Shown here in pieces: positions 8,158 to 64,000 of a stretch of 64,000 nucleotides of DNA (position 1 is its first letter; every line of letters starts with the position of its first letter). Where the stretch lies: assembly GCF_000516515.1 (NCBI RefSeq), contig NZ_KI911784.1, positions 4,626,633-4,690,632 of the forward strand, written 5' to 3'. Below the pieces are notes generated by a model. That model saw only the letters and a program-made list of their open reading frames with translations, was not told the origin of the DNA and did not search any database. A program made the position numbers and the translations under genes. This stretch comes from Chloroflexus sp. Y-396-1 (GTDB taxonomy: Bacteria; Chloroflexota; Chloroflexia; Chloroflexales; Chloroflexaceae).

Positions 8158-10374
8158 ATGATGATTGCATACCCTCGCTTGTTCTCTACCACAGCCCCCC
8201 GCCTTTGGCTATTTGTCGCTTACCAAACTGCTTTCCTTTCGATCCTTTTTTCATATCTACAAGTCCAATCTACAGGTGTCTCATCACCACCAATATCTGC
8301 AACGAGTCTTTTGTCGTATGCAACGATAGATCGCAATGTCTTCATCGAGAATCGCGGTCAGTTTGCCGATGGATTGGTCGCGGTCATGCTCGCACAGGAA
8401 GCTCAATTGGGCATCGGATACGATGGATGTTTGCATTTGATGTTTGATGATCTTCCACCAATTGTTCTAACATTTACTAGTGAGGGTTATATATCCCACG
8501 CCTCAGTTACACTTATTCGACCTCTAAAGACTAAAGTCTCATTTCTGTACGGAAATGATCCAGAAAAATGGCAATCTGATGTGCCAGTGTGGGAGAGTGT
8601 ACGAATTACTGGATTACTGCCACATATTGCAATAGAATTAGTCGTAGAAGCAAACCGTTTGCGGCTGAAAGCTATTCCAGATAACACCATTCCTGATCCA
8701 GATTTGCATAAGATAAAGCTCTTAGTCAGTAATACTGAAGTGGTTGGAATTGTTGATAGTGAGTTAGAAGTGCAAACCGGTAACCGGCGGCTATACTTAC
8801 CATTGCTCGAGATACATGGCAGAAATGCAACTTCGTTTCGTGCGACACCGATTGTTATTGATCCCTATGTAGTAAGTGCACCTTTTGTCTATCCAACGAT
8901 AACAAAAAAGTTCAAAACTTCAACCTCGACTAATATTGCACAAATACTAGCAGAAAGCACATTTTTGGGCGGTCGAATGGAAAAGAATTCAGACATCGCT
9001 ACAGTAATGTCACTAGATAGCCAAAATAACGTTGTGCTTGCGGGAGAAACTCGGTCTCCTAATTTCCCAACGACTCCAATAGCATATGACACAACATTCA
9101 ATAGACGCAGTGATGCAATCATTGTAAAACTGAGTAATGACTTGAGGACACTTCTAGCAGCAACATTTCTTGGCGGATATGGCGAAGAAACCATTACAGC
9201 ATTAACATTTGATAGTCATAACAATATAGTTGTTGCAGGTAATACGAATTCTCCCAACTTCCCAACCACGTCAGGAGCATATGATACGAGCTACAATGGA
9301 CGTGATGATGTATTCCTGGCGAAATTAAACAGTGACCTTTCAATCCTTCACGCGGCTACTTTCCTCGGTGGTCTTAGATCTGACTATGCAATTTCACTGA
9401 CACTAGACCGCAAGGATAATGTCTTTGCCGCAGGATATACGTGGTCTCTTGACTTCCCAATCACAGCAGGAGCGTATGATTCAACACCTGACATCCGGTC
9501 AGATGCGTTTGTAGCGCAACTGAGTAGCGATCTGACAGAACTTGTGGCGGCTACATTCCTTGGTGGAAGCAGATTGGATCTAGTCACAAAGCTGTTACTC
9601 GATGATCAAGGAAACGTAGTAATCACAGGACAAACACAATCTCCCGACTTCCCGACCACATCAGGAGCGTATGATACAACACACAATGGTTTGTATGATG
9701 GATTTGTAGCGAAGTTGAGCAATGACTTGACGATGCTTGAAAGCTCTACGCTTCTCGGTGGAAGCTATGATGAACTCCTTACTGCATTAGCTTTAGATAT
9801 TCAGGGGAATGTGATAGTAGCTGGAAGCACAACCTCTCCCGACTTCCCGACCACATCAGGAGCGTATGATACGATACACAATGGTTTGTATGATGGATTT
9901 GTAGCGAAGTTGAGTAATGACTTGACGATGCTTGAAAGCTCTACGCTTCTCGGTGAAAGCTATGATGAACTCCTCACTGCATTAGCTTTAGATATTCAGG
10001 GGAATGTGATAGTAGCTGGAAGCACAACCTCTCCCGACTTCCCGACCACATCAGGAGCGTATGATACGATACACAATGGGAAAGCAGATGTATTCGTGGC
10101 AAAGTTCAGCAACACCCTGAATACTCTCGAGAATGCTACCTTCCTCGGCGGAACTCTGTCTGACAATCCTACATCACTGGCACTAGATTCGCGGGGAAAT
10201 ATATTTGTGGCAGGATGGACTCTATCTCCTGATTTCCCAACAACTGTAAAGGCATATGATAGAACACATAACGGTGGTGTAGATATATTTGTCGCTAAAC
10301 TTACCTTGACTTCACAGAGACAAATGATACCGCTTTCAAAAGTTTGCAGGGTTTGCAATTTGTACCTCAGCTGA
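8158..10374 (+). CDS. SBBP-repeat beta-propeller surface protein
   Basis: A 738-residue protein with an N-terminal hydrophobic stretch (about residues 15-38), the FIENRGQF motif near residue 62, and then seven repeats of about 65 residues. The repeat pattern is TFLGG...LDxxGNVxVAGxTxSPDFPTTxxAYD...FVAKL. Such SBBP repeats are predicted to fold as beta-propeller blades, and seven repeats suit one complete propeller. Repeats 4-6 are almost identical at DNA level with a 195-bp period. After the last repeat the protein ends in an unrelated short tail (KVCRVCNLYLS), so a C-terminal anchor or sorting domain may have been lost. Codon use is visibly AT-richer than in neighbouring genes, which suggests transfer. 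ATG 8158 follows AGGAGAG. Function is unknown. Confidence 0.8.
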   Translation: MMIAYPRLFSTTAPRLWLFVAYQTAFLSILFSYLQVQSTGVSSPPISATSLLSYATIDRNVFIENRGQFADGLVAVMLAQEAQLGIGYDGCLHLMFDDLPPIVLTFTSEGYISHASVTLIRPLKTKVSFLYGNDPEKWQSDVPVWESVRITGLLPHIAIELVVEANRLRLKAIPDNTIPDPDLHKIKLLVSNTEVVGIVDSELEVQTGNRRLYLPLLEIHGRNATSFRATPIVIDPYVVSAPFVYPTITKKFKTSTSTNIAQILAESTFLGGRMEKNSDIATVMSLDSQNNVVLAGETRSPNFPTTPIAYDTTFNRRSDAIIVKLSNDLRTLLAATFLGGYGEETITALTFDSHNNIVVAGNTNSPNFPTTSGAYDTSYNGRDDVFLAKLNSDLSILHAATFLGGLRSDYAISLTLDRKDNVFAAGYTWSLDFPITAGAYDSTPDIRSDAFVAQLSSDLTELVAATFLGGSRLDLVTKLLLDDQGNVVITGQTQSPDFPTTSGAYDTTHNGLYDGFVAKLSNDLTMLESSTLLGGSYDELLTALALDIQGNVIVAGSTTSPDFPTTSGAYDTIHNGLYDGFVAKLSNDLTMLESSTLLGESYDELLTALALDIQGNVIVAGSTTSPDFPTTSGAYDTIHNGKADVFVAKFSNTLNTLENATFLGGTLSDNPTSLALDSRGNIFVAGWTLSPDFPTTVKAYDRTHNGGVDIFVAKLTLTSQRQMIPLSKVCRVCNLYLS
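9641..10030 (+). repeat. Tandem 195-bp duplication inside the propeller gene
   Basis: 9641-9835 and 9836-10030 differ at about five positions by eye. A third, partial copy starts at 10031 and diverges after about 50 bp. The period equals one 65-residue propeller repeat, so the reading frame is preserved. This indicates recent internal duplication or gene conversion. Confidence 0.9.
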
Positions 10375-23583: not shown

Positions 23584-23878
23584 TGTGCTTTCTCCTCGAC
23601 AAGCGCGATATTAGGACAAAAAGCTGTTAATCTTACTTTATCACAATGGCACCGATCCTGAACAGAACGATAGGAGCGGTTACCCAACTCGCCCTATTGG
23701 AGTAAGGTTTCATCGAATTACCACGGTCAACCTTTCGGAGCCTGATCAAAAACTCGGATTTCTCATCGGGAACACACCGTGCCCATGCAACCATGGCGTG
23801 AGGGGGTTGCCATCGTTCTTTTTCTCCAGCTCCTACCTTCCCCTTGCCGCTGGCGGCAGGGGACGAGGGCGAAGGTGA

Positions 23879-24253
23879 GGGGCTCCCATCTCCCCGTCGA
23901 GGAGCGGCAGGGGGCGAGGGGCGAAGGTGAGGGGCTCCCATCTCCCCGTAGCGGAGCGGCAGGGGACAAGGGGGGAAGGTGAGGGGATCCCATCTCCCCC
24001 TTCCTCGCCCCGTAGAGGAGCGGCAGGGGGCGAGGGCAAAGGTGAGGGGATCCCATCTCCCCGTTGAGGAGCGGCAGGAGGCGAGGGGCGAAGGTGAGGG
24101 GCTACCATCTCCCCGTCGAGGAGCGGTAGGGGGCGAGGGGCGAAGGTGAGGGGCTACCATCTCCCCGTAGCGGAGCGGCAGGGGGCGAGGGGCGAAGGTG
24201 AGGGGCTACCATCTCCCCCTTCCTCTCCCGCGCTGCGGGAGAGGAAGGGGGCT
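23879..24253. repeat. 52-bp minisatellite array
   Basis: Units beginning GGGGCTCCCATCTCCCCG or GGGGATCCCATCTCCCC start at 23879, 23931, 23983, 24046, 24098, 24150 and 24202. Spacing is 52 bp except one 63-bp unit. Each unit ends in GGCGAAGGTGA or a near variant. The last unit contains a perfect 17-bp stem (CCCCCTTCCTCTCCCGC, 24215-24231, with 24235-24251). Confidence 0.9.
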
Positions 24254-24854
24254 GGGGGGGAAGGTGAGGGCCGCCAGGCGTGCTCCGCAGCACCAACGCT
24301 GACACCGGTGCACCCCTGTTCCACCCATCAGGATGCGGGCCAGCGGCCTGCGCTCCCCCAGCACGCAACCGTGGCGTGAGAGGTTGCCATCATTCTTTTT
24401 CGCCAGCCCCCACCTTCCCCCTTCCACTGGCGGCAGGGGGCGAGGGGCGAAGGTGAGGGGATCCCATCTCCCCCTTCCTCGCCCCGTAGAGGAGCGGCAG
24501 GGGGCGAGGGCAAAGGTGAGGGGATCCCATCTCCCCGTTGAGGAGCGGCAGGAGGCGAGGGGCGAAGGTGAGGGGCTACCATCTCCCCGTCGAGGAGCGG
24601 TAGGGGGCGAGGGGCGAAGGTGAGGGGCTACCATCTCCCCGTAGCGGAGCGGCAGGGGGCGAGGGGCGAAGGTGAGGGGCTACCATCTCCCCCTTCCTCT
24701 CCCGCGCTGCGGGAGAGGAAGGGGGCTGGGGGGGAAGGTGAGGGCCGCCAGGCGTGCTCCGCAGCACCAACGCTGACACCGGTGCACCCCTGTTCCACCC
24801 ATCAGGATGCGGGCCAGCGGCCTGCGCTCCCCCAGCACGCAACCGTGGCGTGAG
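23975..24854. repeat. 474-bp tandem duplication
   Basis: About 23975-24380 repeats at about 24449-24854 with an exact 474-bp offset: GGGGATCC at 23983 and 24457, CAGCACGCAAC at 24358 and 24832. A third, partial copy follows to about 25060. It includes minisatellite units, the CTCCGCAGCACC segment and a REP-like palindrome. Confidence 0.9.
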
Positions 24855-25088
24855 GGGAGGGCCATCGTTCTTCTTCTCCAGCCCCCACCTTCCCCCTTCC
24901 GCTGGCGGCAGGGGGCGAGGGCGAAGGTGAGGGGCTCCCATCTCCCCCTTCCTCTCCCGCGCTGCGGGAGAGGAAGGGGGCTGGGGGGAAGGTGAGGGCC
25001 GCCAAGCGCACTTTGTAGCACCAACGCTGACACCGGCGTCCCCCTATTCCATCCATCAGGATACGGGCCAGGGGAAAGGTCAGAAGGA

Positions 25089-25872: not shown

Positions 25873-28602
25873 TTAACGATTGATCACCGGCACAAAGACC
25901 TTATGGCTGGATGGCTGTGGATTCGGGTTCGGCGTCGGGCTGGGGCCTGGCGTCGGGCTGGGGCCTGGCGTTGGGCTGGGGCCTGGCGTTGGGCTGGGGC
26001 CTGGCGTCGGGCTGGGGCCTGGCGTTGGGCTGGGGCCTGGCGTCGGGCTGGGTGGCGCGGTGATCGTAATTGTACGGATAATTCCATTCGGCGGCGAGAC
26101 ATTCTCACCACGATTGTTACTACGTCCCTGCGTATCCTCACCGGTCATTGTGTTATAGTCAACCACAATCCCGATATCATACGTTCCCGGTTCGCCGAAT
26201 ATCTCATTCCAATTAACCTCGCCACCACCCTGCGACTTTATCCACTGGTTCAGCGCAATGGAGTATGTTGCCCCCGGTTCCATCACATGTTTCGGCACCT
26301 GGGCGCTGATGGTCGCGCAGGAAGGTGTAGCATTAGCCCCAGCATTTGGATCTGGCGCCGGTACGGCCGTTAGCGCCGGCGTTCCAGGATTGGTGCGACG
26401 TGCAATGCAGAGATCGACAAAGAAACTACCACCACCACTTGCCGCGACAACGCTGCGCGTTGCTGTGATACTATTATTGCGCAAATTGCGCAGCGCAAGC
26501 ACGATATTAGCGAATCGGCCGTTGCTTGTCTGCACATCAAACGTATCGATCAGAATATCGGGTTTAGCAGCTACTACCTTTTCGACTGCAAAGTAGCGCA
26601 GGCGCGGCGTAAAGGTAGATAGGCCAGGGTCTTGGATAAATTGAGCCCGGTATTGCATACAGGTAGCCTGAATCTCCTCGTTAGGGAAGGCGTTGATCAG
26701 GCGTACTACGTTTTCACCGTTCTTTGAGCGCAAAGCTGATGACGTGTCACCATCGAGATCACGCCAGCGCGAGGGATTTGTTGATGACGTTGACGGATCG
26801 AAGTCACTCTCACGGCAGGTACCGCTAGTCACCACTGCCCGGAACTGAATCCGAATATCGGCCTCTGGATTCTGAGCCGGACGGTTAAGGTCAGTAAGCC
26901 ACTTGAACGCCAGCAGACGTGAGGTCTCACCATTGGTCAGTACCGGGAATGGCTTCGAATAGTACCATCCTTCCGAAACACGAGTTGCACCGCTCGTCTC
27001 ATTTGCACCGCCAACACCACCAACGAAAATGGTTTTGGTCGGTTGGTTACTTTCATTTGACCCGCCAATGACGTACATCCATGCTGTATTGGCCTGAGTT
27101 GTGCCATTAGAAGGAGGAACCGCCGGCACCAGCGCAACCGACGCATTAAGCCTCCTATTCGGTAATGGTAGGACATAATCGTTGGTTTCATTAGTTCCAA
27201 CGAAGTAGTTGCCACTCGCGGTCAAATCCTCAAGCAAGAACTGGTCGTTATAGATAGCAACCGGAATCGTGGCAGTGGCGCCAGTCGCACCAGGTGTGCC
27301 GGTAGCGGTCGAACCGGTCACGTAGTAGAGACGATTATTGAAACTGACTCCGGTCACTCCTTGCCGGCCCTGGATGCTGATTGTTTGGGTACCGCCACCG
27401 CCACTCGCACGAGCGACCTGATCGGTCCAGGTTAGCGTGCCGTTGGTCGGGTTCACATCGGCGCGGCGTACTGACGTGTTGAGTGTATTACATTCAATAT
27501 CAGTACACCCTCCTAGCAAGAAGATAGCATCTTTCTGTACCGGCGTCCCACCTTCGATGCGGGTAGTACTGGCGGCAATTGCCGTGCCAGAGTGGATTGC
27601 AAACGGAAGGTCAGCGAGCCTAGCCCATACGGTTGCTTCGCTAGCGTTGGTTGGATGGACAAGATTGCCATTGCTATCAACTTTTGTATAGAAGACGTGT
27701 GGATAAATATCCTCTTGCAGAAATTGATTGGGAGCAATGCTAAGCCCACCAATAGCATAAATATAATCAGTACCATTACTGGTACGGACATGCACAACCT
27801 GTACATTCTGGATGCCGCGCAGATCGGGTGAATTAGGATCAGTAATGATATTTCCGTTACTATCCAGTGTTGGGAAGCGCCAGTTATTGGGTGCACTCCA
27901 GCCCACGATATTGCCACTTGCGTCAACAGTGGCTCGCTGCACGATGTTGGTGGAAAAATCGTAGATTGCGCAATCCTGATCGTACATGCTTCCGCCAATA
28001 ATAAAGATGTACCCTAAGTTGGTACCGGCTGTCGCCGGTACGGCTACCGCTCCAGCCCGTGAACGCCCGGCCAGTGGTGTATCACATTCGGGGCCGGGAT
28101 CAACGGCGGGAATTGAAAATGCGGTGAAGGCGTCGTTACCTGGTGGAACCGGCTCTCGAGTTTCCAGGCTGCCGGTCTCTTGATTAACCACCCCACGGTA
28201 AATGTAGGAAGAACGGTTTTCCTCCCCCGGATTTGGACTGGTTGCACCACCGATCACAAACAAGTACCTGCCGAGACTGACGACAGGTGCATCGCTGAGC
28301 GGCTGGGGTAACTCCGCCGCAGCGATTGACCAATTGTTGCGATTAAGCGCACCGGCCGGCGCCAGTTCAATTGCACCAACCACGTCAGGGTTACTGGGCG
28401 ATCCTGGCGATGCAGCAACGACAGTGCGCTGAAACACACCATCAGCAAAATCGGCCTGTGAGTTATCAATGATTTCCAGCGATCCGGTCTCGTCATCAAG
28501 GGCACGCACTGCCGGTGGCAGAGAGACCAGCAGCCAGACCATACCGATCACTGCAATGATGCATAACGTGAGTGATCGCTGAAATTGCCGGGACATTCTC
28601 AT
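25873..28602 (-). CDS. Secreted Kelch-like/CARDB-like surface protein with Pro-rich C-terminus
   Basis: A 909-residue exported protein with a signal peptide at about residues 10-34 ending near AVRA. The bulk (about 80-560) consists of loose repeats around IYAIGG, IFIIGG, MYVIGG and IFLLGG, typical of Kelch-like propellers. A CARDB-like immunoglobulin fold follows ([15 protein letters not shown] ... LALRNLRNN). The C-terminus has seven PSPTPG units and ends [10 protein letters not shown]. The repeats are encoded by an 18-bp minisatellite. ATG 28602 has GGGGAGGAA ahead. It lies 200 bp downstream of the TadG/VWA gene on the same strand, so it may be part of that cell-surface cluster. Function is unknown. 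Confidence 0.75.
25931..26053 (-). repeat. 18-bp minisatellite encoding PSPTPG repeats
   Basis: Seven units of GGCGTCGGGCTGGGGCCT, or the same with GTT for GTC, run in tandem within the reading frame. Copy number could vary between strains without breaking the frame. Confidence 0.9.
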
Positions 28603-51018: not shown

Positions 51019-51580
51019 GAGCGTGATCAGAAACCCATCTTCAGTTCAACGTGACACGGTGGCCTCCCGTGCATTCGACCTGACGTGATGCCCAGATCAT
51101 CGTTCCGATGCCGGATGATGGTTATATCCCCTCGCCGACGGATGCGGCGCCACCAATATCGTTCGTATCCTCACCGTCGGCGCCAATCGAATTGACCGTA
51201 TCGTTCGCCCCGCCATTTTCCGCTCCACCATCGTCCACCCCGCCATCGTCCACCCCGCCATCGTCCACCCCGCCATCGTCCACCCCGCCATCGTCCACCC
51301 CGCCATCGTCCACCCCGCCATCGTCCACTTCCCCATGCCGCCCAACACCGTCGCCACCGTCTGCACCCCACCTGTACTATCAGCGGCACAACGCTGCGTA
51401 GTTAGCGTGATCCCCATCGGCGCCCAAACGGAGCCGCGAACGAGAAATGACCATCTGCTGCATGACAACGCGCCGAAACGCTTACACGACAATAGCGTAG
51501 GTGCGGTTCGTGCACTGCACCTACGCAATAGGAACAGAGGCACAATATGATAGAAATCTAGTTTTTTGATCACGCTCTCA
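51016..51580. repeat. Inverted-repeat-bounded element, copy 6, carrying a 15-bp tandem array
   Basis: Left end TTAGAGCGTGATCAGAAAC (51016-51034), right end GTTTTTTGATCACGCTCT (51561-51578). Inside are about seven 15-bp units CCGCCATCGTCCACC (51225-51329). Frames on both strands are open through the array, but no gene call is supported because they lack ribosome sites and normal composition. Confidence 0.7.
51225..51329. repeat. 15-bp tandem array
   Basis: Seven units of CCGCCATCGTCCACC or one-base variants. Translation on one strand would give (DDGGV) repeats and on another (PPSST) repeats. It lies within element copy 6. Confidence 0.9.
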
Positions 51581-59019: not shown

Positions 59020-59252
59020 GAGAACAGTTGTATATACGCTGCGCGAACTGTATATATATGTGCTACCCATTCTTGAACTCTCTGACAAGAGGAAGTAACA
59101 GAAGAGAGCCGACTATCGCCCGCACGAAACATGGTACTAATCGTAATCGGGATTATAGACCTATTGCCTGTTGAAACTGTTTAGTGTACAGTAGAGTCGC
59201 TATACTATGTGTTGTAACGAAAAAGTACTTGTTATTAATGGAAACACACGTT

Positions 59253-61655
59253 ATGGCTCAACCACTTGTGTTCAAACGGGGTACCGCTAAGCGTTTCTAC
59301 TCAGGATTCATCGTTACCCTCATCCTCGGCTTCCTCTTCAGCGTAGTCATGTCGGTTTTTGCGGCGGGAACTTTAACTGTCCAGGTATATCTCGACAGTG
59401 ATCGCGATGGAACCTTCGACAGTGGTGAAACTGGGATCAGCGGTGTTCTGGTCTCGGTCTATTCTGCTGAAAGCGTGATCGTTGGTCTAAATACAACCGA
59501 CAGCAACGGGCAAGTGGTCTTCCCCTCATTACCCGACGGCAACTATCGCATTGAAGTAAGTAACCTTGGCGCCCGGGTTGTCTCTGTACCGGGAAACGAT
59601 AACCCCGGCCTCCTCTCATTTGTGACTATTTCGGGAGGTGCTGTCACCCAACGAATTGGTCTGCGTGAGCTTGACGGTGGTTCGGTAGATACCGGCGCGC
59701 CAGTCGGAACCCGCAGTATCTCAGTGCGCGTCTGGGATGACAGCGACGCTGATGGCATTCAGGATGCAAGTGAACCATCATTGAGCGGTCTCCCGGTACG
59801 CCTGGTTGATAGTCTGGGCAATCTTGTTTCCGGGCCGGTAAACACTGATGCGCTGGGACGCGCAACCTTTAACAACGCCCCCACCGGCGCCGGCTATCGT
59901 GTACGCATTCTGGCGGCTGACATTCCATCAGGCTACATTCTAACCCAAGCCTTTGTGAACGATGGCGATCCAAACCCAACCATTCGCGACTCGAACGCGG
60001 TACTGGTGAGTGGAAATGTAGAGGCAACACTGCCTAGTACCGGACGCGGCGTAAACATTGACAGCGTTGATATTGGTTTCACTCGTGGAGCAGTGAGTGG
60101 CTTCCTCTGGCGCGACAACGACCGCGATGGGCTGTGGGACAGTGGTGAACCACGATTGAATGGGGTCACTGTTCAGTTGGTAGATACGAGTACCTCTACA
60201 GTAATCAGCACCACTACCACGCGCCAGCGGATCGGATCGACCCAACCCGAAGACGGTGGTATCTTTGTGTTCCCCAGTTTGCCGCTGACGACAACTTATC
60301 AGGTCGTGATACCCAATAGCCAGTTTGCCAGCGGCGCCCCGCTCTTCGGCGCGGCAAATTCACCGAGTGTTGCCGGTGGTGATGTAGGTTTGCAAGATGG
60401 AATACCTGGCACAAATGACGTAACCGGGCCGGTTCTCACCGTGAATGCCACGACGAATGTCTATTCCGACCAACGTTTCGGCTTCTATAAGGGCGTCGTG
60501 GGTGACTTCGTCTGGCTTGACGATGATAGTGATAGTAATCAGGACCCCGGCGAAATCGGGGTGAACGGTGTCATTGTCTTTGTAGATGCCGACAATGATG
60601 GCATCCGAGACAGCGGCGAACTCTTTACCGTTACTACCAATAATCCAAACAATGGTCAACCTGGCTACTATCTGTTCGATGATCTGCCACTAGGCAGCAG
60701 CTACCGCATTACCCTCGATCCGGATAACTTCAAAGCCGGTGGTGCATTGGTCGGTCTGGGCAATTCGACCGGAACTGCGGCTACGAATGGGAATGGTGAT
60801 TTTTACGTCTATCAAGTTTCGAGCACCTTGAATGAAGCTTCACCACAGAATATTATTATTGACTTTGGCCTGTACCAGCTAGCCCAAATTTCCGGTCAGG
60901 TCTTCTTCGACGGCGCGAATGCACCGGCTGATAATGCAGCCAGTGGTGAGCCGGGGGTTGGCAGCGTCACGGTACGGTTGCGAGACGGCAGCGACGCCAT
61001 CATCACGACGACTACGACCCTCCCCGACGGAACGTTCACCATCTCCAATGTCGCCCTCGGCACGTATCGGCTGGAGTTTGTCAACCCCGATGCAACAAAC
61101 TTCAGCTTTGTAGCCGCCGATACGGCGGATAACCGCGTTGCCAGCATTGTGAGCAACAACGGTCGCACCGCGCTGTTCACCGTCAACGCCTCGAACCAGA
61201 GCATCGTGCGCTCCGCCGCGCTGATCGGGAAGAGTACGGTGAATGGGATCACCTTCGTTGACCAGGCCTATGACGGGCAGCGTAGCGGCGATCCGGCGCT
61301 CGCCAACGTGACCGTCAATCTGACCGCGACGGTCGCGCTACCTAATCTGACCACCACCATCACGCGCAGCACCACCACCGACAGTAGCGGCAATTACAGC
61401 TTTGGCGGGCTGCCCGGCGGAACAGGGGCAGTTACCTTCACGCTGAGCTTCACCCCACCGCCGGCCACCCCACCGTACCAGGTGACCCAGGCCGATGTGG
61501 GAGCGGATGCAACCGATAGCGACGGCGCTGCCGACCTGACCGATCAGCCGCTCGGCGTGGGAACAACTGCCAGCCGCGACCAGGGCTACTACCAGAACGT
61601 GACCGTCCAGGCGCGGGTGTTTGAGGAGACCGCTACGATCAACAATACGTTTTGA
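59253..61655 (+). CDS. Giant SdrD/Cna-B-like repeat surface protein, 5' part before frameshift
   Basis: About 800 residues before a stop. An N-terminal signal/anchor (FIVTLILGFLFSVVMSVFAAG) is followed by four SdrD-B-like calcium-loop repeats (VYLDSDRDGTFDSGETGISG, VWDDSDADGIQDASEPSLSG, LWRDNDRDGLWDSGEPRLNG, VWLDDDSDSNQDPGEIGVNG). Then comes the first long repeat unit (start FDGANAPADNA) of Cna-B-like folds. Such proteins act as stalk or adhesin at the cell surface. The stop at 61653-61655 comes from an extra T: the next repeat copy reads ACG TTT GAG where this one reads ACG TTT TGA. The start may be ATG 59238 or 59253. ATG 59253 is preferred because GGAAA lies about 10 bases ahead. Confidence 0.85.
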   Translation: MAQPLVFKRGTAKRFYSGFIVTLILGFLFSVVMSVFAAGTLTVQVYLDSDRDGTFDSGETGISGVLVSVYSAESVIVGLNTTDSNGQVVFPSLPDGNYRIEVSNLGARVVSVPGNDNPGLLSFVTISGGAVTQRIGLRELDGGSVDTGAPVGTRSISVRVWDDSDADGIQDASEPSLSGLPVRLVDSLGNLVSGPVNTDALGRATFNNAPTGAGYRVRILAADIPSGYILTQAFVNDGDPNPTIRDSNAVLVSGNVEATLPSTGRGVNIDSVDIGFTRGAVSGFLWRDNDRDGLWDSGEPRLNGVTVQLVDTSTSTVISTTTTRQRIGSTQPEDGGIFVFPSLPLTTTYQVVIPNSQFASGAPLFGAANSPSVAGGDVGLQDGIPGTNDVTGPVLTVNATTNVYSDQRFGFYKGVVGDFVWLDDDSDSNQDPGEIGVNGVIVFVDADNDGIRDSGELFTVTTNNPNNGQPGYYLFDDLPLGSSYRITLDPDNFKAGGALVGLGNSTGTAATNGNGDFYVYQVSSTLNEASPQNIIIDFGLYQLAQISGQVFFDGANAPADNAASGEPGVGSVTVRLRDGSDAIITTTTTLPDGTFTISNVALGTYRLEFVNPDATNFSFVAADTADNRVASIVSNNGRTALFTVNASNQSIVRSAALIGKSTVNGITFVDQAYDGQRSGDPALANVTVNLTATVALPNLTTTITRSTTTDSSGNYSFGGLPGGTGAVTFTLSFTPPPATPPYQVTQADVGADATDSDGAADLTDQPLGVGTTASRDQGYYQNVTVQARVFEETATINNTF

Positions 61656-64000
61656 GAGCAGCGAGGCCGGGCTAAATGGTATCACCGTGACTGTGAGCGG
61701 GCCGGTGTCCAGTTCGGCACCCACGAACTCATCAGGTCTGGTGACCTTCAGTGGCCCGCCCGGCGTCTACACCTTTACCATCCCCACCGATCCGACCGGC
61801 TATACCCGCTCGCCGGGCAATACCGGCACGGCCGCCACGGTGCTCGTGCTGAGTGGGCAAACCGCACCGGCAGTGCCGTTTGGCTATTACCAGCCAGCCC
61901 AGATTTCCGGTCAGGTCTTCTTCGACGGCGCGAATGCACCGGCTGATAATGCAGCCAGTGGTGAGCCGGGGGTTGGCAGCGTCACGGTACGGTTGCGAGA
62001 CGGCAGCGACGCCATCATCACGACGACTACGACCCTCCCCGACGGAACGTTCACCATCTCCAATGTCGCCCTCGGCACGTATCGGCTGGAGTTTGTCAAC
62101 CCCGATGCAACAAACTTCAGCTTTGTAGCCGCCGATACGGCGGATAACCGCGTTGCCAGCATTGTGAGCAACAACGGTCGCACCGCGCTGTTCACCGTCA
62201 ACGCCTCGAACCAGAGCATCGTGCGCTCCGCCGCGCTGATCGGGAAGAGTACGGTGAATGGGATCACCTTCGTTGACCAGGCCTATGACGGGCAGCGTAG
62301 CGGCGATCCGGCGCTCGCCAACGTGACCGTCAATCTGACCGCGACGGTCGCGCTACCTAATCTGACCACCACCATCACGCGCAGCACCACCACCGACAGT
62401 AGCGGCAATTACAGCTTTGGCGGGCTGCCCGGCGGAACAGGGGCAGTTACCTTCACGCTGAGCTTCACCCCACCGCCGGCCACCCCACCGTACCAGGTGA
62501 CCCAGGCCGATGTGGGAGCGGATGCAACCGATAGCGACGGCGCTGCCGACCTGACCGATCAGCCGCTCGGCGTGGGAACAACTGCCAGCCGCGACCAGGG
62601 CTACTACCAGAACGTGACCGTCCAGGCGCGGGTGTTTGAGGAGACCGCTACGATCAACAATACGTTTGAGAGCAGCGAGGCCGGGCTAAATGGTATCACC
62701 GTGACTGTGAGCGGGCCGGTGTCCAGTTCGGCACCCACGAACTCATCAGGTCTGGTGACCTTCAGTGGCCCGCCCGGCGTCTACACCTTTACCATCCCCA
62801 CCGATCCGAGTGGCTATGTTCGCTCGCCGGGCAATACCGGCACGGCTGCCACGGCGCTCGTGCTGAGTGGGCAAACCGCACCGGTAGTGCCGTTTGGCTA
62901 TTACCAGCCAGCCCAGATTTCCGGTCAGGTCTTCTTCGACGGCGCGAATGCACCGGCTGATAATGCAGCCAGTAGTGAGCCGGGGGTTGGCAGCGTCACG
63001 GTACGGTTGCGAGACGGCAGCGACGCCATCATCACGACGACTACGACCCTCCCCGACGGAACGTTCACCATCTCCAATGTCGCCCTCGGCACGTATCGGC
63101 TGGAGTTTGTCAACCCCGATGCAACAAACTTCAGCTTTGTAGCCGCCGATACGGCGGATAACCGCGTTGCCAGCATTGTGAGCAACAACGGTCGCACCGC
63201 GCTGTTCACCGTCAACGCCTCGAACCAGAGCATCGTGCGCTCCGCCGCGCTGATCGGGAAGAGTACGGTGAATGGGATCACCTTCGTTGACCAGGCCTAT
63301 GACGGGCAGCGTAGCGGCGATCCGGCGCTCGCCAACGTGACCGTCAATCTGACCGCGACGGTCGCGCTACCTAATCTGACCACCACCATCACGCGCAGCA
63401 CCACCACCGACAGTAGCGGCAATTACAGCTTTGGCGGGCTGCCCGGCGGAACAGGGGCAGTTACCTTCACGCTGAGCTTCACCCCACCGCCGGCCACCCC
63501 ACCGTACCAGGTGACCCAGGCCGATGTGGGAGCGGATGCAACCGATAGCGACGGCGCTGCCGACCTGACCGATCAGCCGCTCGGCGTGGGAACAACTGCC
63601 AGCCGCGATCAGGGCTACTACCAGAACGTGACCGTACAGGCGCGGGTCTTCCACGAGACGGTGACGATTAACAATACCTTTGAGACCGGTGAAGCTGGTC
63701 TGCGGGCAGTCACCGTAAACGTGAGTGGACCAGCGTCAGGTTCGCTGACAACCGACCTCTTTGGTCTGGTGACCTTCAGTGGCCCGCCCGGCGTCTACAC
63801 CTTTACCGTCCCCACCGATCCGACCGGCTATACCCGATCGCCGGGCAATACCGGCACGGCCGCCACGGCGCTCGTGCTGAGCGGGCAAACTGCACCGGCA
63901 GTGCCGTTTGGCTATTACCAGCCAGCCCAGATTTCCGGTCAGGTCTTCTTCGACGGCGCGAATGCACCGGCTGATAATGCAGCCAGTAGTGAGCCGGGGG
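60891..64000 (+). repeat. 1014-bp tandem protein-repeat array
   Basis: Four starts (60891, 61906, 62920, 63934) of almost identical DNA. The unit of 338 residues contains two Cna-B-like modules. Unit 4's first 100 bp before its mark (63650-63760) are diverged, and a few single-base changes appear elsewhere. The array extends beyond the window. Confidence 0.95.
61654..64000 (+). CDS. Giant repeat surface protein, continuation after frameshift (runs off window)
   Basis: Past the extra T, the frame starting GAG at 61654 stays open to the window end, about 780 codons. It continues the same protein: ESSEAGLNGITVTVSGP, YTRSPGNTGTAA and then repeats of FDGANAPADNA. Units start at the TCCGG marks 60891, 61906, 62920 and 63934. 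The last three are 1014 bp apart and the first is 1015 bp, which is exactly the extra base. The protein probably continues well past 64000. It has no start codon of its own and is best seen as one gene with a frameshift or a sequencing/assembly error. Confidence 0.8.

What the first reader, a model, noticed from the sequence alone, without database searches (positions are those of the whole stretch)
61650..61653. One extra T breaks the giant repeat surface gene
In repeat unit 1 the DNA reads ACG TTTT GAG, giving a stop. The next unit has ACG TTT GAG at 62662-62670 and stays open. The unit spacing is 1015 bp here but 1014 bp in the other units, so a single inserted base is the simplest reading. 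Options are a true frameshift mutation, slippage-based phase variation at the T run, or a sequencing/assembly error in near-identical repeats.
Basis: seen in the sequence. Interest (0 to 1): 0.6.

Follow-up and report, generated by a model that had tools for sequence, protein, structure and literature searches.

The report
Stray base breaks repeat-protein gene
In this hot-spring Chloroflexus genome one extra T splits the gene of a large secreted repeat protein that is whole in every comparable relative; the break is real in the assembled sequence but looks like an ordinary recent mutation or an assembly error, not a genetic switch.

Summary
Window 61650-61653 reads TTTT where the three sister units read TTT, and the spacing is 1015 bp against 1014. 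The result is a TGA stop at 61653-61655 that splits one gene into 823 + 1732 codons. The gene is orthologous to an intact single ORF of 2110-2132 codons in all six Chloroflexus genomes where it was found. Those carry one copy of the 338-aa unit at about 67% identity; here it is present four times at 91-99% DNA identity. Units 1 and 2 are otherwise identical for 762 bp left and 145 bp right of the extra base. In 264 kb of the same assembly no other split ortholog was found. Phase variation by slippage is not supported: no homopolymer in the gene exceeds 5, and relatives carry 4-T and 5-T runs in frame at this spot. TTT TGA has the layout of a +1 shift site like the one this organism uses in prfB, but lacks the Shine-Dalgarno-like stimulator and any conservation. 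What remains is a consensus error in near-identical repeats (slightly favoured) or a very recent loss-of-frame mutation. Only reads or re-amplification can decide. Interest is low.

The parts
59184..61655 (+). upstream fragment: 823 codons, ending in TGA at 61653-61655; likely start ATG at 59253, followed by a hydrophobic export signal and SdrD_B repeats
   Evidence: ORF; Pfam SdrD_B, 6 stretches, E 3.6e-67; start and signal read by eye
61650..61653 (+). T run of four; three T in every other unit
61653..61655 (+). TGA stop created by the extra base
60879..61893 (+). repeat unit 1 (1015 bp), carrying the frame break
61894..62907 (+). repeat unit 2 (1014 bp, 338 aa), open; identical to unit 1 for 762 bp left and 145 bp right of the break
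   Evidence: predicted as three beta-sandwich domains, pLDDT 85.6
62908..63921 (+). repeat unit 3 (1014 bp), open
63922..64000 (+). first bases of repeat unit 4 (1017 bp in all; continues outside the window, genome 4690554-4691570)
61621..64000 (+). downstream fragment of the same gene; opens only at a TTG and continues to genome 4693484 (1732 codons after the stop), ending in a CARDB-like domain; no export signal of its own

Best explanation
This is one ordinary single-base insertion in one copy of a recently amplified, near-identical tandem unit of an otherwise conserved Chloroflexus gene for a long secreted protein of SdrD_B/Cna-B-type beta-sandwich domains. The most likely single source is a consensus or assembly error left in place: the extra base lies in a short homopolymer, in a 907-bp stretch where units 1 and 2 are otherwise identical, and everything downstream is still open. 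In the living cell the gene is then probably one ORF of about 2,550 codons. Shown: the base, the stop, the intact orthologs, the identity of the copies, the absence of other frame breaks in the 264 kb sampled. Inferred: that the base is not in the organism's DNA.
For: Extra base and its unit context. All six Chloroflexus orthologs are single open frames of 2110-2132 aa without internal stops, and both fragments together align end to end with them. 1732 codons after the stop are still open. Units 2-4 stay open, and their differences in the first 258 codons are mostly synonymous. In 264 kb of the same assembly no other split ortholog was found; exact 100-bp repeats make up only about 5.2 kb of that 264 kb, so the one suspect indel sits in the small part hardest to assemble or polish. 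Long-read errors are mostly short indels at homopolymers, per PMC12007338.
Against: The sequencing method of this assembly is unknown and no reads were available. The rest of the 264 kb looks clean, so the consensus is generally good. A run of 3-4 T is short for a typical homopolymer error. Mis-mapped reads from unit 2 would tend to erase a false extra base in unit 1, not create one. The repeats fill about half of this gene, so a real mutation in it would also land in a repeat about half of the time.
Confidence: 0.5

Rival explanations
1. A true, very recent loss-of-frame mutation in this strain. The cell makes an 823-aa truncated protein that ends early in the third domain of unit 1; the downstream part is not exported because it lacks a signal. 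Gene conversion between units 1 and 2 could undo it naturally.
For: The base is unambiguous in the assembly. The rest of the assembly looks clean. Near-identical tandem units are prone to recombination, and the units are mosaics of each other. A second giant repeat protein (5995-aa open frame) exists in the same genome, so loss may be tolerated. Domain borders come from the model.
Against: All six relatives with the gene keep it intact. There is no further decay in 1732 downstream codons; unit 1 has only one private substitution after the break.
Confidence: 0.4
2. The stop is partly bypassed by +1 ribosomal slippage at TTT TGA, as in prfB (CTT TGA), so some full-length protein is made despite the break.
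For: The P-site codon TTT can re-pair with the overlapping TTT when the ribosome shifts by +1 before the UGA. The same organism's prfB carries the layout GGGGG CAC CTT TGA C, and all seven relatives have the CTT TGA C shift site too, so this type of shift is used in the genus. The RF2 mechanism is reviewed in PMC5009743.
Against: There is no Shine-Dalgarno-like element just upstream (CAACAATACG), and G not C follows the UGA. The downstream RNA folds no better than shuffled sequence (z 0.29). The site is absent from all other units and orthologs, so it is not conserved.
Confidence: 0.06
3. Slippage-based phase variation: the T run switches between 3 and 4 and turns the surface protein on and off.
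For: Only that a homopolymer carries the change and that the product is probably exposed outside the cell.
Against: A 3-4 base run is far shorter than usual contingency tracts (established knowledge). The longest homopolymer in the gene is 5 and there are no short tandem tracts. Orthologs have TTTTT or TTTT in frame at the site and are intact.
Confidence: 0.03

Closest known systems
Chloroflexus SdrD_B-repeat protein orthologs (C. aurantiacus 2110 aa, C. aggregans 2132 aa, C. islandicus 2129 aa and others)
   Same: same genomic neighbourhood, end-to-end protein similarity, same N-terminal signal and CARDB-like C-terminus
   Different: they are unbroken and carry one copy of this unit instead of four
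SdrD/SdrC B-repeat and Cna-B-type surface proteins and pilins (Pfam PF17210, PF17802; PDB 10ps, 6fwv)
   Same: SdrD_B domains found by sequence and beta-sandwich fold by structure
   Different: scores are far under the cut-off of the MSCRAMM SdrD family; no LPXTG seen at the C-terminus; not a member of that adhesin family
prfB programmed +1 frameshift (CTT TGA C)
   Same: a sense codon able to re-pair by +1, followed by in-frame UGA
   Different: no upstream Shine-Dalgarno, no following C, not conserved
gene-fragmenting indels in long-read assemblies (PMC12007338)
   Same: single-base indel at a homopolymer that splits one conserved gene
   Different: the source of the reads is not known here, and the error status is not proven

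Membership tests
phase-variable (contingency) locus | hypermutable tract (long homopolymer or short tandem repeats) | tested here: not met
   longest homopolymer in the gene is 5; no SSR of 4 or more copies of 2-6 bp units
phase-variable (contingency) locus | both states present within one clone | not testable with these tools
   no reads and no conspecific genome held
programmed +1 frameshift of the prfB type | shift-prone codon followed by UGA | tested here: met
   TTT TGA at 61650-61655
programmed +1 frameshift of the prfB type | Shine-Dalgarno-like element just upstream and C after UGA | tested here: not met
   CAACAATACG TTT TGA G here against GGGGG CAC CTT TGA C in the same genome's prfB
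programmed +1 frameshift of the prfB type | conserved in relatives | tested here: not met
   absent from the other units and from six Chloroflexus orthologs
assembly or consensus error | contradicted by independent reads or amplicons | not testable with these tools
   no reads held; circumstantial support only
SdrD_B-domain protein (Pfam PF17210) | score over the curated cut-off | tested here: met
   224 and 467 bits against 29.7
MSCRAMM family adhesin SdrD (NCBIfam NF012181) | score over the curated cut-off | tested here: not met
   135 and 280 bits against 2500

The most novel reading that the evidence does not exclude
The tandem near-identical units work as a reversible reservoir: a unit can lose frame by a single base and be restored by gene conversion from its identical neighbour, with low-level full-length protein from +1 slippage at TTT TGA in the meantime, giving heterogeneous filaments.
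Probability: 0.03. Interest if true: 0.5.

Novelty: already known. Interest (0 to 1): 0.14.

Why it matters
If it is an error, annotation of this genome wrongly splits a conserved gene of about 2,550 codons. If it is real, it is a case of a strain losing a conserved secreted repeat protein that other Chloroflexus keep, and a marker for testing what that protein does in mat filaments. Either way it is a caution against calling pseudogenes or phase variation from a single assembly of near-identical tandem repeats.

Tried and rejected
Phase variation: no hypermutable tract. Programmed frameshift: no stimulators, no conservation. Two genuine separate genes: near the stop the second frame has no ATG start, only a TTG at 61621 and GTGs after the stop; it has no second export signal, and both parts align to one ortholog. 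Poor overall assembly with many frame breaks: none seen in a comparison with C. aurantiacus (no candidates among 44-47 orthologs) or in a coding-potential scan of 264 kb. The most similar other junctions in that scan (window 43096 and 40261) separate different genes: PALP/FtsW and DUF1641/Pyr_redox_2. A conspecific copy was looked for among the Chloroflexus genomes and in viral contigs without success. Paper searches for the strain gave leads (Chloroflexus sp. Y-396-1, MS-G, MS-CIW-1 in PMC10927633) but no proof of identity or of sequencing method.

Full report
What was checked. The window lies at 4626633-4690632 of a single-contig genome of 4,890,986 bp whose genus mates are Chloroflexus: C. 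islandicus and other Chloroflexus records are named; the two complete relatives of 5,258,541 and 4,684,931 bp I take from memory to be C. aurantiacus and C. aggregans. At 61650-61653 the DNA reads TTTT, so ACG TTT TGA GAG follows in the frame of the upstream ORF. The three sister units read ACG/ACC/ACA TTT GAG. Unit spacing is 1015, then 1014 and 1014 bp; the fourth unit is 1017 bp because of an in-frame codon. The upstream ORF has 823 codons, and the frame after the stop stays open for 1732 codons.

What the gene is. Both fragments are made of SdrD_B-type domains (Pfam PF17210, E 3.6e-67 and 1.6e-142), the second ending in a CARDB-like domain. The N-terminus has a hydrophobic export signal (read by eye). 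One 338-aa unit is predicted as three beta sandwiches (pLDDT 85.6), similar to SdrD B domains and Cna-B-type pilins. The stop falls after residue 258 of the unit, early in its third domain. The scores are far below the cut-off of the staphylococcal SdrD family, so this is a protein with such domains, not a member of that adhesin family. Surface attachment is inferred; no LPXTG is seen at the C-terminus.

Relatives. Six other Chloroflexus genomes hold the ortholog in the same neighbourhood as one uninterrupted frame of 2110-2132 aa; the fragmentary seventh (82% complete) has no match. They carry one copy of this unit at about 65-69% identity and further, more diverged neighbours. In the window's genome the unit has been amplified to four copies of 91-99% identity. 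Units 1 and 2 have no difference other than the extra base over 762 bp to its left and 145 bp to its right. The differences among units look like a mosaic (units 1 and 3 against 2 and 4 in the last 110 bp, units 1 and 2 together before that), which fits unequal crossing-over or gene conversion (inference). Differences in the first 258 codons are mostly synonymous, so the units have been under selection for protein sequence.

Is it an error or a mutation? A hexamer-based scan of 264 kb of this assembly for same-strand junctions with coding potential on both sides gave 39 junctions. Nearly all have an ATG close to the junction, as expected in operons. The most similar others, at window 43096 and 40261, join different genes (PALP/FtsW and DUF1641/Pyr_redox_2). 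The repeat gene is thus the only split ortholog seen, and a comparison with C. aurantiacus over 44-47 shared genes found no further frame shift. The assembly is therefore generally good, and the one suspect base lies in the roughly 2% of the stretch made of exact repeats of 100 bp or more (5.2 of 264 kb). Short indels at homopolymers are the dominant long-read error (PMC12007338). That, with the absence of any further decay, makes me lean slightly to a consensus error (0.5) over a very recent real mutation (0.4). This is a judgement: no reads, no sequencing method and no second strain were available.

Why not a switch. The run is four bases; the longest run in the 7.67-kb gene is five, and there is no short-unit tandem tract. 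C. aurantiacus has ACTTTTGAG and another relative AGTTTTGAA at the same codons, in frame and intact, so runs of this length are not by themselves unstable over evolutionary time.

Why not programmed frameshifting. TTT TGA does allow the peptidyl-tRNA to re-pair one base downstream. The organism's own prfB shows what a used site looks like: GGGGG CAC CTT TGA C, and the CTT TGA C shift site is present in all seven relatives. The gene's site lacks the upstream element and the following C, has no unusual downstream RNA structure (z 0.29), and exists in no other unit or relative. A low background of full-length product is possible but there is no sign of selection for it.

Verdict. The meaning is modest: a single-base break, either an artefact or very young, in a conserved secreted repeat protein. 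Reads across unit 1 would settle it.

Noticed in passing
G000:C1:459685-460707 (locus L088): prfB of this genome has the programmed +1 frameshift site GGGGG CAC CTT TGA C; seven other Chloroflexus keep CAT CTT TGA C with a G-rich element just upstream.
   Followed up: yes
G000:C1:about 350000-366000: A second giant SdrD_B-like protein with an open frame of 5995 codons, intact; relatives hold counterparts of 5540-5580 codons.
   Followed up: partly
60879-64000 and genome to 4691570: Lineage-specific amplification of a 338-aa unit from one (relatives) to four near-identical copies, apparently replacing the diverged neighbouring units of the relatives.
   Followed up: partly
23853-24958: 52-bp GC-rich tandem repeat array (several arrays, 84-97% matches), coding context not examined.
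   Followed up: no
9640-10079: 195-bp direct repeat, 2.3 copies at 97% identity, of in-frame length inside a 738-aa ORF (8158-10374) that stays open.
   Followed up: no
51200-51328 and 25931-26052: Short tandem arrays with periods that are multiples of three (15 bp x 8.6 and 18 bp x 6.8).
   Followed up: no
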